Shown: piece by piece, positions 13,338 through 51,110 of the stretch | Layout: each line of letters starts with the position of its first letter | Position numbering within the stretch: position 1 is the first letter of the stretch | NCBI GenBank assembly: GCA_020723995.1 | Contig: DYHT01000003.1 | Coordinates: 1 to 64,000 of the forward strand | Direction of reading: 5' to 3' | Source of the DNA: Chloroflexus sp. | GTDB lineage: Bacteria > Chloroflexota > Anaerolineae > Anaerolineales > Villigracilaceae | DNA: 64,000 nt | The notes under the pieces: model-generated | Database searches by the model: none | What the model saw: only the letters and a program-made list of their open reading frames with translations | What the model was told of the DNA's origin: nothing | Program-made: the position numbers and the translations under genes

Positions 13338-13397
13338 GAGATTTCCGCCAATCGCAGTCCGTCGGGTTAACCGAAAAACCATAGCCTGAAGGACTAT
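13338..13397. repeat. 60-bp direct repeat, left copy (possible attachment site)
   Basis: These 60 bases are identical to 18598-18657. The two copies bracket about 5.2 kb carrying HigBA, MntA-HepT, the 486-residue protein and a truncated tyrosine recombinase. The repeat ends in an interrupted hairpin (CATAG ... CTATG in the right copy). Confidence 0.8.
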
Positions 13398-14325: not shown

Positions 14326-14610
14326 GTGATTGAGTCCTTCGCGTCTGAAGAAACAAAAAAGATTTTCCTCGGCAAAGTCTCCACAAAACTGCCAAAGGAC
14401 ATTCAACGCACTGCCAGACGCAAGTTGCTTTACCTGGATGATGTGGAGGATTTACAAGACTTAATTGCTCCCCCAGGGAACAGGCTCGAAAAACTCAAAG
14501 TCAACCGGTCCGGGCAATACAGTATTCGAGTCAATGACCAGTGGAGAATTTGTTTTGAGTGGGTTGCAAACAAGGCCAGAAACGTGGAAATTGCGGACTA
14601 TCATTCTTGA
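14326..14610 (+). CDS. higB: HigB-type toxin (RelE/ParE superfamily)
   Basis: The 94-residue protein is a host-inhibition-of-growth toxin of the RelE superfamily, which cleaves mRNA on the ribosome. Family landmarks are KLLYLDDVEDLQDL, LEKLKVNRSGQYSIRVNDQW and the C-terminal RICFEW...VEIADYH. The C-terminal His and the basic residues fit an active fold. The start is GTG 14326. The antitoxin follows after 12 bases, the reversed toxin-first order usual for higBA. Confidence 0.92.
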   Translation: MIESFASEETKKIFLGKVSTKLPKDIQRTARRKLLYLDDVEDLQDLIAPPGNRLEKLKVNRSGQYSIRVNDQWRICFEWVANKARNVEIADYHS

Positions 14611-14622
14611 AGGTAAAAAAAT

Positions 14623-14934
14623 ATGGACAAAACCCTATCCCCCATCCACCCCGGTGAAGTGCTTCTGGAAGACTTCATGAAGCCGCTAGGATTAAGCCAA
14701 TATCGCTTGGCAAAAGATCTGGGCGTTACACCCATTCGCATTAGTCAGATTGTAAATGGTCAACGCTCGATCACTGTAGACACCGCATTGAGACTGGCAC
14801 GCTATTTTGGTACGAGTGCATCGGTTTGGTTGCGACTTCAAGTCCGCTATGATCTTGAGGTTTCTGAAAGTGAATTGAGCAACCGCATCAAACGCGAAGT
14901 AAAGGTTTTACACCAGCCTGTTACCAGCGTCTAA
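14623..14934 (+). CDS. higA: HigA-type antitoxin (XRE helix-turn-helix)
   Basis: The 103-residue protein opens LSPIHPGEVLLEDFMKPLGL, typical of HigA. The helix-turn-helix is LSQYRLAKDLGVTPIRISQI and continues VNGQRSITVDTALRLARYFG. It should neutralise HigB and repress the higBA promoter. Both members look complete, so this addiction pair may help to keep the surrounding island. Confidence 0.93.
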   Translation: MDKTLSPIHPGEVLLEDFMKPLGLSQYRLAKDLGVTPIRISQIVNGQRSITVDTALRLARYFGTSASVWLRLQVRYDLEVSESELSNRIKREVKVLHQPVTSV

Positions 14935-15323
14935 AACACGAAAAGACAGCCTGCTGATTACTTCAGCGCCAAGGTTTAGGTAGAAAACCGGGACGAAAAT
15001 CTTATTCCTATTTTCGTAGTAAAACAAGGCCGTCAACGACCACTTGCTTTTAGCGGGTGGTCGTTGATTTCAATACCGAAAGGCGCACGAAAACATGCTG
15101 AAAAGGGGTCAGTACACACAAAGGAGACAAAATTACCTGCACAAACCATCTATACCGCGCACGGTCACAAATTGCGGTTTTGAGAATCGACAAAATTGAA
15201 CCGCGAAGCACGCTAAGAACGCTAAGATAAGAGCATTTCTTCGCGCTCTTTGCGCTCTTAGCGGTAAGAAAAAAGCGCAGAAAGTGACCGTGTTCAGTAT
15301 ACACATCCGAAGAGGACGACTAC
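14935..15323. other. Intergenic stretch with a terminator-like hairpin and word repeats
   Basis: TCAACGACCAC (15033-15043) pairs with GTGGTCGTTGA (15057-15067), followed by TTTCA, and may end higBA transcripts. At about 15190-15270 the sequence repeats words such as CGCTAAGAACGCTAAGA and GCGCTCTTTGCGCTCTTAGC, part of the 7/8-base word family found elsewhere in the window. No gene is visible. Confidence 0.5.
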
Positions 15324-15664: not shown

Positions 15665-15958
15665 ATGAAACGTGATGAAGTGCTTCGCATTCTCCGTGAG
15701 CAACGAAATGACTTGACAAAACGCTACAGTGTGGCGTCTCTATCCGTGTTCGGCTCGGTAGCGCGCGACGAAGCCCGCCCTGGTAGCGATGTCGACCTGC
15801 TGGTCGAGTTTACGCAACCGGTGGGATTGTTCCGGTTTATTGAACTTCAACAGCGGCTGGAGTCTTTGCTTGGTTGTAAAGTGGATTTGGGCACACCGCG
15901 TTCCCTCAAGCCGCGTATCAAAGAACACGTCTTGCAGGAGACTGTCCGTGTCGCCTAG
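15665..15958 (+). CDS. mntA: MntA-type minimal nucleotidyltransferase antitoxin
   Basis: The 97-residue protein has the minimal nucleotidyltransferase signature GSVARDEARPGSDVDLLVEF (Gly-Ser ... Asp-x-Asp). In MntA-HepT systems this enzyme AMPylates and so silences the HEPN RNase. It opens MKRDEVLRILREQRNDLTKR after GAAAGGTG. The downstream hepT overlaps it by 11 bp but is disrupted, so this antitoxin is probably left without a functional toxin. Confidence 0.88.
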   Translation: MKRDEVLRILREQRNDLTKRYSVASLSVFGSVARDEARPGSDVDLLVEFTQPVGLFRFIELQQRLESLLGCKVDLGTPRSLKPRIKEHVLQETVRVA

Positions 15959-16281
15959 AACATGGCAGGAACGCATCGAAGATATCCTGGCATGCGCCCG
16001 CAACGTGCAGGACTTCACGGCAGGCATGAGCCTGGACGACTTTTGGATGATCCCCGCACTGTGCGCGCGGTGGCGTTTTAATTCACAACCATCGGCGAAG
16101 CCACGCGCGCCATCCCAGCAGAGGTTCAGGAACGTTATCCGCAAGTTCCCTGGGGAAAGATGCAGGGTATCCGCAATATGCTGGTACACGAGTATTTCCG
16201 GCTCGATGAGGAAATTCTTTAGAAAGCCATCCAGGAAGATATTCCCCCGCTGATTACAGCTTTAGAAAAACTGACCGGTTG
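15948..16281 (+). pseudogene. hepT: Disrupted HepT-type HEPN toxin gene
   Basis: The gene opens with a GTG overlapping mntA: TWQERIEDILACARNVQDFT then AGMSLDDF, as in HepT (DUF86). Around 16040 one base appears missing, shifting the frame. The alignment resumes as TTIGEATRAIPAEVQERYPQ, VPWGKMQGIRNMLVHEYFRL, then DEEIL-stop-KAIQEDIPPL. A TAA near 16078 and a TAG near 16220, where the family usually has Trp, also interrupt it. The RNase motif (R-N-x-x-x-H) is still legible in RNMLVH. Confidence 0.85.
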
Positions 16282-16285
16282 ATAC

Positions 16286-16475
16286 CAATCAACCTAACCC
16301 GGACAAGCCGGAACCAAACAGGTTAAACGGAGAGAGGGAAAGTTGCTCAAAAAGGACGGGGCACAAGGCACCCTACACAAGTCAACGAGAGACAAGCCCA
16401 AAGGCTTTCTCAGACTTGAGAAACGAGGCAAGCGGATAGCTTCCTCAAGGTTTGGCGACTTTCCCTCCCAGTGAT
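16286..16475 (+). ncRNA. Predicted structured RNA upstream of the 486-residue protein
   Basis: A 13-bp helix with a single G-U pair closes about 108 bases: GAGGGAAAGTTGC (16334-16346) with GCGACTTTCCCTC (16455-16467). Inside it AAGCC-loop-GGCTT (16394-16407) is extended by GAGA/TCTC across a 3-base bulge, and CTTGAG (16415-16420) pairs with CTCAAG (16444-16449). A separate stem, AACCT ... AGGTT enclosing CCGG-acaag-CCGG, lies just upstream (about 16288-16325). No coding frame explains this. Mobile elements with an RNA component often have such a leader; the role here is inference. Confidence 0.45.
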
Positions 16476-16566
16476 TGTAGCATGAGATGGGATGTATTTG
16501 CATCTTGAAATCTGCGCAGATTGTGGTTAGATTGCTCAATTCACCTGATGAGACTGGAGTTGAGCG

Positions 16567-18027
16567 ATGGCAGACGAACTACTTTCGGATCGATATGCTG
16601 ACATTCTGGATGGTGTGCTCAGGAGCTATGACCGGATAGTGATCACGGGCAGTTTGCAGCCATTGTGTTATGCCCAGGGGATGACCCGTTATTTGTATGC
16701 GCAGGGCATCCGCATCTTTGACTATGCCCGGTTTGCCGAGCCGCTGCGCGAACGTATCCGGGAGCATGCCGAAGCGCTGGCCCAGGCGAACGGTCTGACG
16801 ATTGAGTTCGTTCGCAAGAAAAACTTTCGCAAAGAAGACCGTGTTCGTGAGATATTGAAGGCACGTGGCGAACACCCGGGTCTGGTGCACATCTTTGCCG
16901 CCATGGAACCTTGCCCATCGTACCGTCCCTGGCACGACAAAAAGACGGGCAAAACATACTTGAAGCCGGACAGTGGCAAATGTTTGCACTACTATTTCAT
17001 GGACGAGCAACTGGGGCTGTGCTATCTGCGTGTGCCCACCTGGTGCCCGTTCCGGCTACAGTTCTATTTCAATTTTCACGCCTGGCTGGCTGCTCAACTA
17101 CGGGAACGCGGCATCGCCTTCGACCTGCTGGACAATGCCTTCACGCACATCGCCGACTATGACTTGGCCAACCAACTGGCAGATGAGTTCGACGTTGAGA
17201 AGTTGCATCAGCGTCTGGATGAATTGGCCCGCCAGTATTGCCCAGTAGCCCACAACTTGGAGTTGACCTATCATTGGAGCATCATGCAGGCCGAGTACGC
17301 CACGGATCTGGTGTTCAAAAGCCAAGACGCTTTACAAGCCTTCTACCCGCATCTCCTGGAAACCCTTATTCGGGCGGTCAAACCCACCGATATTGCCACC
17401 TTTCTCGGTCGCAAGCTGCACGGCAACTACCAAGGAGAGATGGGCAATCGCTTCAACAAACGCTGGCTCGGCAGTCGGGTCAAACACCAGATGGGGCCGG
17501 TCTCGATCAAGATCTATGACAAGTTCGGCCTCATCCTGCGTATCGAGACCACTGTCAACAATGTCTCGTTCTTCAGACACTACCGCCAGGTGCAGCATCG
17601 CGACGGAACGTCCAGCATGCGGTGGGCGCCCATGAAGAAGACCATCCACAGCTTACCGGCTTTGCAGGAAGCGCTCTCCGCTGCCAACCAACGTTACCTC
17701 AAGTTCATCTCGTCCATCGCTACCCCGGAAGTAGGCGTGGAAAAACTTCACCGGTTGGCTGAAACCAAGACTGAGAACAATCGCCGTCACAAGGGCTTCA
17801 ATCTCTTCTCGGAAGAGGATACCTGTTTGTTCCGTACCTCGTTGAGCGGCGAGTTCTTCATCAGCGGTTTCACCAACAAGGAGTTGCGTCGCCACTTCCC
17901 CAATAAGAATTCGGGCCAGATCACCCGCCTACTCAGCCGCTTGCGGGCACATGACGTGATCAAAAAAGTCGGCAAACGCTACAAATACTACCTCACCGAG
18001 TTCGGTCGCCAGGCTGCCGCTAAGTAA
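16567..18027 (+). CDS. 486-residue protein of a widespread unnamed, multi-copy family
   Basis: It opens LLSDRYADILDGVLRSYDRI. Conserved-looking blocks are DRIVITGSLQPLCYAQGMTR, RKKNFRKEDRVREILKARGE, VHIFAAMEPCPSYRPWHDKK, LHYYFMDEQLGLCYLRVPTW and CPFRLQFYFNFHAWLA. The C-terminal 100 residues look like a winged helix (GEFFISGFTNKELRRHFPNK ... ITRLLSRLRAHDVIKKVGKR). From memory, relatives occur in many copies in diverse bacteria without an assigned role. No DDE, DEDD, HNH, serine or tyrosine recombinase motif is visible. A structured leader precedes it. Its 3' end abuts a tyrosine recombinase gene cut in mid-domain, consistent with insertion of a mobile unit. Confidence 0.75.
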   Translation: MADELLSDRYADILDGVLRSYDRIVITGSLQPLCYAQGMTRYLYAQGIRIFDYARFAEPLRERIREHAEALAQANGLTIEFVRKKNFRKEDRVREILKARGEHPGLVHIFAAMEPCPSYRPWHDKKTGKTYLKPDSGKCLHYYFMDEQLGLCYLRVPTWCPFRLQFYFNFHAWLAAQLRERGIAFDLLDNAFTHIADYDLANQLADEFDVEKLHQRLDELARQYCPVAHNLELTYHWSIMQAEYATDLVFKSQDALQAFYPHLLETLIRAVKPTDIATFLGRKLHGNYQGEMGNRFNKRWLGSRVKHQMGPVSIKIYDKFGLILRIETTVNNVSFFRHYRQVQHRDGTSSMRWAPMKKTIHSLPALQEALSAANQRYLKFISSIATPEVGVEKLHRLAETKTENNRRHKGFNLFSEEDTCLFRTSLSGEFFISGFTNKELRRHFPNKNSGQITRLLSRLRAHDVIKKVGKRYKYYLTEFGRQAAAK

Positions 18028-18611
18028 ACTATTCTTCCCTTGCCGCCTTTGGCCCCTCCTTCGACGCCATGTTTGATTTCAACTTTCCCTCGTTTAGCAT
18101 CCACATCTCCGATTTTCAAAGCGGATACTTCAGACGCTCGCAGTCCGGTATCCAGCAAGACCAGGAGGATTGCCCGGTCGCGGTTAGCGGTCGCTCGACG
18201 CATGACGAACTTATGTCGCTGGTCAGTATTTGCTTCTCGAGTGTAGACACAAGCTTTTAGCATGCGCTCAACCTCATCCTGGGTGAAAGGATCCGTTTGT
18301 GTCTTCTGGAATTTCGGCGCCGGGACCTCCTTTACCGGATTGGGAAGCGCGAACTCTCGGCTGGCCCAGGTAAAGAATGAGGAAAGCGTGACCCATACGT
18401 TACGGATCGTCTTGGGAGAGAGTGGGGTCGTTTTTCCGTTGAAACGCTGCGGCGTGTACTCTGTCCGAAGCCAGGTGAGGTACGTGCTTATATCTTGGGC
18501 AGCAATTTTGCCGACCATGATTTCCCTCATGTACTCCGCCCAGTGATTCAACAATCGCTCGTAGGATTGGACCGAGCGATCGGCGAGGCCTTCGTTTGAG
18601 ATTTCCGCCAA
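18021..18611 (-). pseudogene. Tyrosine recombinase/integrase, C-terminally truncated
   Basis: The fragment has the N-terminal SAM-like core-binding domain (SVQSYERLLNHWAEYMREIM, KTIRNVWVTLSSFFTWASRE) and the start of the catalytic domain with the first catalytic Arg (LLDTGLRASEVSALKIGDVD, Arg158). It stops right after the beta-strand GGAKGGKGRIVYL. The rest of the frame is antisense to the end of the 486-residue gene, so the HxxR and Tyr parts are gone. The missing half is not found upstream of that gene either. The start (TTG 18611) lies in the 60-bp repeat. Confidence 0.85.
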
Positions 18612-18657
18612 TCGCAGTCCGTCGGGTTAACCGAAAAACCATAGCCTGAAGGACTAT
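18598..18657. repeat. 60-bp direct repeat, right copy (possible attachment site)
   Basis: It is identical to 13338-13397, 13 bp from the 3' end of the tRNA-fMet gene, and contains the start of the truncated integrase. Here the hairpin AACCATAG-CCTGAAGG-(A)CTATGGTT is complete. Position next to a tRNA and an integrase is what an att site would show; this is inference. Confidence 0.8.
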
Positions 18658-18670
18658 GGTTTGTGAATAG

Positions 18671-18742
18671 TAGCGGGGGCTGGACTCGAACCAGCGACCT
18701 CCGGGTTATGAGCCCGACGAGCTGCCACTGCTCTACCCCGCG
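18671..18742 (-). tRNA. tRNA-fMet (initiator, anticodon CAT)
   Basis: A full cloverleaf can be drawn. Acceptor CGCGGGG has a mismatched first pair, the anticodon stem carries GGG/CCC around CTCATAA, and the T-arm is CTGGTTCGAGTCCAG. The mismatched 1-72 pair and three consecutive G-C pairs in the anticodon stem are initiator hallmarks. The 3' CCA is not encoded. Confidence 0.95.
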
Positions 18743-50689: not shown

Positions 50690-50803
50690 GTATCATCTCA
50701 ATAACTTGGGGAGTGGGGTGTGTGCGGGCGGCTTCGCACCCTTCGGGTATGCTTCGCGACCGCCCGCACACACCCTATCCTCCCCTACTTATTGAGAAGA
50801 TAC
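50690..50803. repeat. MITE-like palindromic element, copy 2 (complete, in csp leader)
   Basis: The 114-bp element has terminal inverted repeats GTATCATCTCAATAA and TTATTGAGAAGATAC (14 of 15 paired). GC-rich inner arms (GTGTGTGCGGGCGG) and a 28-base asymmetric loop lie between them. An exact 7-bp direct repeat ATCGCAA flanks it (50683-50689, 50804-50810). The whole unit can fold into one long hairpin in the csp mRNA leader. Confidence 0.88.
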
Positions 50804-50849
50804 ATCGCAACAAATTCTTTTTTTCAATCTCAGTAAGGAGAAGTAACAA

Positions 50850-51059
50850 ATGAACGAGCGTGTGACTGGAACGATCAAATGGTTCAACGCCGCGAAGGGC
50901 TACGGCTTCATCGCGCGCGAGGGCGGCCCGGACGTTTTTGTCCACTACTCCGCTATTCAGTCCGACGGCTTCAAGACCCTGCAAGAAGGCCAGCAAGTGG
51001 AATTCACCATTGAACAAGGCCCCAAAGGTCTGCAGGCGGCCGACGTCAGGCCAATGTAA
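50850..51059 (+). CDS. Cold-shock protein (CspA family)
   Basis: The 69-residue OB-fold protein has RNP1 KGYGFIA and RNP2 VFVHYSAI. It binds single-stranded RNA and DNA as a chaperone. AAGGAG stands 9 bases before the ATG. Its mRNA would carry the long leader with the MITE-like hairpin, which could alter temperature control. Confidence 0.97.
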
Positions 51060-51078
51060 TCCCTGAATATAAACCTGG

Positions 51079-51110
51079 AATCCCTCCCAATTTTTGGGAG
51101 GGATTTTTTA
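51079..51110 (+). terminator. Terminator of the cold-shock gene
   Basis: AATCCCTCCC-AATTTTT-GGGAGGGATT then TTTTA; a 10-bp stem. Confidence 0.92.

What the first reader, a model, noticed from the sequence alone, without database searches (positions are those of the whole stretch)
16286..18027. Structured RNA preceding a multi-copy protein family of unknown role
A 13-bp closing helix with internal stems lies in the 280 bases before a 486-residue protein that I recognise as widespread but unnamed. On the other side the unit stops inside a tyrosine recombinase gene. A conserved RNA plus one protein is the layout of RNA-guided or RNA-bridged mobile elements. The protein, however, lacks IS110, TnpB, IscB or reverse transcriptase motifs. 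It may be a new kind of mobile unit.
Basis: partly seen in the sequence, partly recalled or inferred. Interest (0 to 1): 0.75.

Follow-up and report, generated by a model that had tools for sequence, protein, structure and literature searches.

The report
New jumping gene with plasmid-type nuclease
The unit is a decayed copy of an unnamed family of bacterial jumping genes that insert after the letters CCTA, and its protein, which databases call a regulator or hypothetical, is predicted to cut DNA with a nuclease fold so far known from plasmid replication and conjugation but, as far as I could find, not from insertion sequences.

Summary
The 13-bp closing helix (16334-16346 with 16455-16467) and the 486-codon ORF are there, and the 5' leader folds better than shuffles (z -4.5). 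But the RNA is optional: it lies upstream of only 6 of 12 relatives checked and is absent from the most active ones.

The unit is a 3'-truncated copy (16293 to about 18019) of a real transposable element. In one relative, seven identical copies sit at seven unrelated sites. 148-151-bp non-autonomous copies share both ends. An empty site in a same-genus genome shows insertion at a single CCTA with no duplication. Both ends carry hairpins and are not inverted repeats. Four branches at 20-25% identity, in Chloroflexota, Betaproteobacteria and Actinomycetota, share hairpin left ends and CTA at both junctions.

The protein has no Pfam domain except, in relatives, a C-terminal winged helix. AlphaFold models of a full-length relative give a TBP-like saddle whose only non-TBP top matches are Rep_trans rolling-circle initiators. 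The Rep_trans catalytic pattern (D; R-x-D; R-x-Y-x-K; R-x-E) maps onto near-invariant D; Q-x-E; K-x-Y-x-K; R-x-E.

Best reading: a new insertion-sequence family working like IS200/IS605 with an unrelated, Rep_trans-type tyrosine nuclease. RNA guidance is not supported.

The parts
16293..16296 (+). CCTA target tetranucleotide at the left junction
   Evidence: Single CCTA in the empty site of a related copy; frame of a carboxypeptidase gene restored by a single CCTA at another copy; CCTA invariant in 28 distinct left ends, partly by selection
16293..16322 (+). Left end: CCTAAC-[CCGG ACAAG CCGG]-AACCAAACAGG, hairpin at 16299-16311
   Evidence: Shared by 19 places in H5_CFX5 and 6 in own genome, 0 in reversed-pattern control; compensatory C-G to U-A changes at two stem pairs, 10 cells against 3.3 in shuffles
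16334..16467 (+). Optional structured leader: 13-bp closing helix with internal stems
   Evidence: present in window, L009, L010, L011, L012, L027 only; no Rfam match above gathering score
16532..16569 (+). Hairpin TTGCTCAA...TTGAGCGA that would pair the ribosome-binding site and start codon
   Evidence: Predicted in window and most relatives despite different sequence
16567..18027 (+). Transposase-like protein, 486 aa; about the last 20-25 residues of full-length relatives lost, two residues missing from a conserved strand (HY--YF)
   Evidence: predicted active site in this protein's numbering: D22, Q241-x-E243, K315-x-Y317-x-K319, R325-x-E327
17509..17547 (+). Codons for K315-x-Y317-x-K319 and R325-x-E327 (predicted catalytic tyrosine at 17515-17517)
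   Evidence: Columns invariant or nearly invariant; same pattern as the Rep_trans active site (PMC4797284)
18011..18021 (.). Break point: element homology stops; right-end hairpin and ..GGTACTA terminus missing
   Evidence: Homology to L009, L010, L011, L014 ends at 18011-18019; complete relatives run about 90 bp further
17988..18611 (-). Tyrosine recombinase gene, C-terminal catalytic half lost at the same break
   Evidence: Pfam Phage_integrase match to profile positions 4-72 of 172 only

Best explanation
16293 to about 18019 is a 3'-truncated, probably immobile copy of an insertion sequence of a family that neither Pfam nor NCBIfam describes. Shown by sequence comparison: complete elements are about 1.67-1.84 kb, carry one ORF of 500-560 aa, begin with a hairpin just after CCTA (CTA in the whole family), end with a hairpin followed by about 20 nt ending in A(C/T)TA, have no terminal inverted repeats, and insert at a single CCTA(A) without duplicating it. 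Short derivatives with the same two ends move without a protein of their own. Inferred: the protein is the transposase. Its N-terminal 390 residues form a TBP-like, Rep_trans-type tyrosine nuclease (metal site D, E, E; nucleophile Y in K-x-Y-x-K; R-x-E) and its C-terminal winged helix helps to bind the ends. It would bind the folded ends on one DNA strand, cut after CTA at both ends through a covalent 5'-phosphotyrosine link, reseal the donor to CCTA plus right flank, join right end to left end as a circle, and reinsert after another CCTA. That is the logic of IS200/IS605 with a non-homologous enzyme. The RNA leader is inferred to be a 5'-UTR or insulator element of some members that, with the hairpin over the start codon, limits expression; it is not a guide.
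For: Mobility: seven copies with identical proteins in H5_CFX5, none in a same-genus genome; six compared over all 1,669 bp are identical at unrelated sites and the seventh has both ends. Pairs of identical 148-bp and 151-bp non-autonomous copies at different sites. Empty site: G402 aligns without a gap across flanks joined by a single CCTA (279 bp, 76%); second case by restored frame. A head-to-tail pair with right end abutting left end (L046). Generality: distant subfamilies in H5_CFX5, Caballeronia and Mycobacterium riyadhense show CTA at both junctions and a left-end hairpin. Nuclease: models with pLDDT 87.8 and 91.0; Foldseek gives 4cij with probability 1.00, E 7e-4; in the structural re-alignment ranks 1-39 are all TBP or Rep_trans (4cwc Z 7.3, 4cwe 7.3, 4cij 7.0), next row Z 6.0. 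Active site: D46, R140-x-D142, R189-x-Y191-x-K193, R212-x-E214 of Rep_trans (PMC4797284) against D21, Q242-x-E244, K316-x-Y318-x-K320, R326-x-E328 of L009, all 16/16 or 15/16 conserved and all on strands; the alignment of model 14-388 with 4cwc 39-239 puts D21 near D46. A 2026 paper made the same kind of argument for archaeal Rep-Arvir and confirmed it by mutation (PMC13107129).
Against: No sequence-level homology to Rep_trans: profile comparison gives nothing and PF02486 does not match the family. With the domain-only model Foldseek alone does not list Rep_trans among its top 50. Z 7-8 is middling, and TBPs score slightly higher. I matched the residues after seeing the conservation, so the chance figure is optimistic. 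The single-strand pathway, circle and covalent intermediate rest on end anatomy and analogy. Because both junctions carry CTA, a 3-bp duplication of a fixed CTA cannot be fully excluded from sequence; three right ends reading ATTA (L009, L022, L059) speak against it. Own genome and most relatives are metagenome-assembled.
Confidence: 0.77

Rival explanations
1. A transposable element with the same ends, but the protein works by another chemistry: the TBP-like domain only binds DNA, and cutting is done by a different active site or by a host enzyme.
For: No sequence homology to Rep_trans; TBPs score as high as Rep_trans; C-terminal winged helix resembles MarR/ArsR regulators.
Against: The invariant residues are catalytic types (D, Q, E, K, Y, K, R, E) in the Rep_trans pattern and on separate strands; a DNA-binding saddle would not need them. 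No second gene is in the element.
Confidence: 0.13
2. Double-strand site-specific recombination at a CTA core, with a circular intermediate and CTA at both junctions, as in IS607- or IS110-type elements.
For: CTA at both junctions in four divergent subfamilies; precise empty site; head-to-tail pair.
Against: No serine or tyrosine recombinase domain and no DEDD domain by Pfam; hairpins at both ends point to single-strand recognition; right ends ATTA in L009, L022, L059 do not match the CCTA at the left.
Confidence: 0.07
3. RNA-guided or RNA-bridged mobile element.
For: A structured leader with compensatory changes precedes the ORF in six members.
Against: RNA absent from the recently active H5_CFX5 element and at least five others; targets share only CCTA(A); no IS110, TnpB or IscB domain.
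Confidence: 0.02
4. A host regulator of the MarR/ArsR type, not mobile, as annotated in GenBank for one relative.
For: C-terminal winged helix; 'ArsR family transcriptional regulator' annotation in Paraburkholderia.
Against: Multi-copy, identical, at unrelated sites, with defined ends, empty site and non-autonomous copies.
Confidence: 0.01

Closest known systems
IS200/IS605 family (TnpA Y1)
   Same: Hairpin at each end, no terminal inverted repeats, short fixed target left of the element, no duplication, precise empty site, short non-autonomous copies; hairpin over the start codon of the transposase gene (the last recalled for IS200, from own knowledge).
   Different: TnpA is a 150-aa HUH enzyme of RRM-like fold; here 500-560 aa, no HUH signature, predicted TBP-like Rep_trans fold plus winged helix. 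Target CCTA instead of TTAC and the like.
Rep_trans rolling-circle initiators (pT181 RepC/RepD, RepSTK1) and MOB_T relaxases
   Same: Predicted TBP-like catalytic domain, same pattern of catalytic residues, hairpin substrate, separate DNA-binding part.
   Different: No detectable sequence homology and no PF02486 match; larger; found in insertion sequences with defined ends rather than as plasmid initiator or conjugation relaxase.
Rep-Arvir (DUF7845) of archaeal viruses and plasmids (PMC13107129)
   Same: Another sequence-divergent branch with Rep_trans-type active site recognised by structure; the same viral entry (A0A2N9QVX7) is a leading match in both viral searches.
   Different: Replication initiator of archaeal elements, not a transposase.
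IS91, ISCR and Helitrons (HUH Y2)
   Same: Asymmetric ends, hairpin near one end, fixed short target, no duplication.
   Different: HUH nuclease with rolling-circle movement; none of these motifs here.
IS110/IS1111 with bridge RNA
   Same: Structured RNA upstream of one ORF in part of the family, no long duplication.
   Different: DEDD plus serine-domain recombinase, RNA essential and target chosen by base pairing; here RNA optional and target four to five bases.

Membership tests
IS200/IS605 | HUH Y1 transposase (Y1_Tnp) | tested here: not met
   No Y1_Tnp match for any of 22 members at E up to 1; no invariant histidine pair
IS200/IS605 | Hairpins at both ends, no terminal inverted repeats | tested here: met
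   Left-end hairpin covaries; right-end CTTG..CAAG hairpin in copies
IS200/IS605 | Insertion next to a fixed short target without duplication | tested here: met
   CCTA; empty site, frame restoration, flank statistics
IS200/IS605 | Excision as a single-stranded circle | not testable with these tools
   Needs biochemistry; only a head-to-tail pair was seen
Rep_trans superfamily | TBP-like catalytic fold | tested here: met
   On predicted models:
Rep_trans superfamily | Catalytic pattern D; R-x-D; R-x-Y-x-K; R-x-E on separate strands | tested here: met
   Analogous D; Q-x-E; K-x-Y-x-K; R-x-E, with conservative exchanges; residue-level superposition not available here
Rep_trans (Pfam PF02486) | Match to the family model or sequence profile | tested here: not met
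   hence not filed as a member of PF02486
Rep_trans superfamily | Metal-dependent nicking with covalent phosphotyrosine | not testable with these tools
   Experiment required
IS110/IS1111 (bridge RNA) | DEDD recombinase | tested here: not met
   No such Pfam match
IS110/IS1111 (bridge RNA) | Conserved essential RNA whose loops match target and donor | tested here: not met
   RNA absent from active copies; targets share only CCTA(A)
IS91/Helitron | HUH Y2 Rep transposase | tested here: not met
   No matching Pfam family
MarR/ArsR regulators | Winged helix as main domain of a small regulator | tested here: not met
   Winged helix only in the C-terminal 110 of about 505 residues; element is mobile

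The most novel reading that the evidence does not exclude
Rep_trans-type (TBP-fold) tyrosine nucleases form a further catalytic class of bacterial transposases, beside DDE, HUH, serine, tyrosine-recombinase and DEDD types, in a family spread over at least Chloroflexota, Pseudomonadota and Actinomycetota; its members also spread some of the short palindromic repeats found in environmental genomes.
Probability: 0.6. Interest if true: 0.88.

Novelty: new variant of a known kind. Interest (0 to 1): 0.8.

Why it matters
If right, single-strand transposition of the IS200/IS605 kind arose a second time from an unrelated nuclease fold, and a widespread protein family now called 'hypothetical' or 'regulator' is a transposase. 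It would give IS annotation a new family with a simple signature (CTA plus hairpin at the left, hairpin plus about 20 nt ending A[CT]TA at the right), a compact single-protein system with a 4-5-base target for testing, and a source for some of the short palindromic repeats of environmental genomes. Literature searches in the held library found no description, but that library lacks most subscription journals.

Tried and rejected
RNA-guided reading: rejected (see rivals). Rfam for the leader: only two chance matches to animal lncRNAs far below cut-off. Profile-profile comparison with Rep_trans, with 3 and 8 sequences: no match, reported as evidence against. phmmer and hmmsearch against PDB sequences: only winged-helix matches at E about 0.1 and a weak chance match. 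Viral contigs and phage records: no relative. L016 flanks as a further restored frame: left and right look like different genes, not used. Base pairing of left-end CCT with AGG 3' of the hairpin as an IS608-like guide: those pairs never change on both sides, and the second subfamily shows no equivalent, so left as an idea. RNA label on the protein tree: two changes needed, so a single gain cannot be claimed. PADLOC was not searched.

Full report
WHAT THE WINDOW SHOWS. The ORF 16567-18027 (486 aa) has no match in Pfam or NCBIfam at a useful score. The 281 bases before it fold at -98.3 kcal/mol, z -4.54 against shuffles, with the closing helix 16334-16346/16455-16467. The unit is bounded on the right by a tyrosine recombinase gene that stops early.

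THE UNIT IS A TRANSPOSABLE ELEMENT, AND THIS COPY IS BROKEN. One scan of genome contigs found 16 relatives, eight of them in one genome (H5_CFX5). Seven full-length copies there have 100% identical proteins, and a same-genus genome has none. Six compared over the whole 1,669 bp are identical, and the seventh has both ends. They start at CCTAACCCGGACAAGCCGGAACCAAATAGG and end at CAAGAATCTCATTGTTTAGGCACTA, then unrelated sequence begins on both sides. The left end occurs 19 times in that genome and 6 times in the window's genome, never in the reversed control. The extra places are mostly 140-151-bp non-autonomous copies: left end, an imperfect palindrome, right-end hairpin..GGCACTA or ..GGTACTA. 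Two such pairs are identical copies at different sites. In 400 Chloroflexota genomes 12 have the left end within 3 mismatches, with no hit in the control. The window copy starts at 16293; its homology to complete copies stops at 18011-18019, so it lacks about 90 bp with the right end, about the last 20-25 residues, and two residues of a conserved strand.

TARGET AND EMPTY SITE. For the 151-bp copy L005, the flanks joined by a single CCTA align without a gap to G402, same genus (279 bp, 76%..TTCTACCGCTACCCTAACGGC..). For L018, a single CCTA restores an M32 carboxypeptidase frame. Among 63 left and 22 right flanks there is little information beyond CCTA, except A at +1 (18 of 22) and avoidance of G at -1. 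Left ends were collected with a pattern that begins with CCTA, so its invariance is partly selected; the empty site is independent of that. CTA lies at both junctions, so a fixed 3-bp duplication cannot be excluded outright; right ends reading ATTA in L009, L022 and L059 favour an element-encoded right end.

ENDS. The left-end stem covaries: C-G to U-A at two pairs, 10 cells changed on both sides against 3.3 in shuffles, and the slid controls fail. The right end has a CTTG..CAAG hairpin about 20 nt before the terminus. L046 shows one right end directly abutting another left end.

THE FAMILY IS BROAD. Relatives at 20-57% identity occur in Chloroflexota and on plasmids of Paraburkholderia, Caballeronia, Rhodococcus and Mycobacterium, and as a fragment in an Acidobacteriota genome with a recognisable left end. 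Multi-copy sets from three other branches give their own ends: H5_CFX5 subfamily 2 (CTA|CCCATTTGCTGAG..CTCAGCA .. ATCGACA..TTGTCGAT, 20 nt, GTGACTA), Caballeronia (TCTA|ACGAGGC TCC GCCTC .. GGAATCTA) and Mycobacterium riyadhense (CTA|CGCCGCCGCCGGG..CCCGGCGGCGG .. GCGGCTA). All have CTA at both junctions, a left-end hairpin and no duplication beyond CTA.

THE PROTEIN. AlphaFold models of the full-length relative L009 are confident (pLDDT 87.8 whole, 91.0 for residues 1-388). The C-terminal 110 residues are a winged helix (Z up to 9.9). The N-terminal domain is TBP-like: in the re-alignment of Foldseek's matches, ranks 1-39 are all TBPs (free or in complexes) or Rep_trans initiators (4cwc and 4cwe Z 7.3, 4cij Z 7.0), then Z falls to 6.0. 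With the whole model Foldseek lists 4cij with probability 1.00 and E 7e-4; with the domain alone it does not list it in the top 50. Rep_trans enzymes have this fold, with D46, D142 and E214 as metal ligands, Y191 as nucleophile and R189, K193, R140, R212 nearby (PMC4797284). The family's near-invariant D21, Q242-x-E244, K316-x-Y318-x-K320 and R326-x-E328 have the same order and spacing within motifs and lie on strands; the alignment range 14-388 to 39-239 puts D21 near D46. The matching was done after the conservation was known, and sequence profiles do not detect the link. A 2026 paper reports another such hidden branch, Rep-Arvir, confirmed by mutation (PMC13107129).

THE RNA. The leader structure is real in the members that have it: six leaders, 93.8% of cells paired, 6 pairs with changes on both sides against 2.6 in shuffles. 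It is limited to window, L009, L010, L011, L012 and L027, and in 400 Chloroflexota genomes only the window's genome and one same-genus genome score strongly. On the protein tree the label needs two changes. In nearly all members a separate hairpin covers the ribosome-binding site and start codon. The likeliest role is control of expression; this is inference.

MECHANISM. Shown: precise insertion at CCTA, both ends kept in non-autonomous copies, recent movement. Inferred: strand-specific cutting after CTA at both ends by Y318 (L009 numbering) with a covalent link, resealing of the donor, a circular intermediate, reinsertion. The single-strand route is preferred because of hairpin ends without inverted repeats and because Rep_trans enzymes act on such substrates.

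NOVELTY. Works like IS200/IS605; not a member, since the HUH transposase is missing. Shares the predicted Rep_trans fold and active-site pattern, but is not in PF02486. I rate it a new variant of a known kind, a single-strand-type insertion sequence with an unrelated nuclease; if the catalytic class is proven it would count as categorically new. No description was found in the papers held, which does not exclude one elsewhere.

Noticed in passing
window 13338-13397 and 18598-18657: Perfect 60-bp direct repeat bounding 5.3 kb that holds two toxin-antitoxin-like gene pairs, this element and the broken integrase; the right copy lies 13 bp from the 3' end of tRNA-Met (18670-18742). It looks like a small integrated island whose integrase was broken where the element now ends.
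   Followed up: partly
G400 (H5_CFX5), loci L100-L129: About 52 CGCAAAG-type palindromic repeats; many sit inside short non-autonomous elements with at least three different pairs of ends, one pair belonging to this family and another also ending in CTA.
   Followed up: partly
window 15199-15268: Palindromic AACCGCGAAGCACGC..CTCTTAGCGGTAAG repeat of the same general type, without this family's ends.
   Followed up: no
L092-L095 (G400): Second, 25%-identical subfamily in four copies in the same genome with its own ends.
   Followed up: yes
window 50692-51110: Rfam cspA thermoregulator match (88.8 bits, cut-off 78) in what appears to be a Chloroflexota genome.
   Followed up: no
window 14326-14934 and 15665-16253: HigB/HigA-like pair and a nucleotidyltransferase (MNT-like) gene followed by a frame-broken HEPN-like partner.
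   Followed up: no
L025: The otherwise invariant R-x-E glutamate is G in this copy; the Rep-Arvir paper reports the same E-to-G exchange in two viruses.
   Followed up: no
NZ_CP070610.1 (L159, L164): Two copies near opposite ends of a linear Rhodococcus plasmid share more than 3 kb at 99.9%, probably a terminal duplication rather than two insertions.
   Followed up: partly
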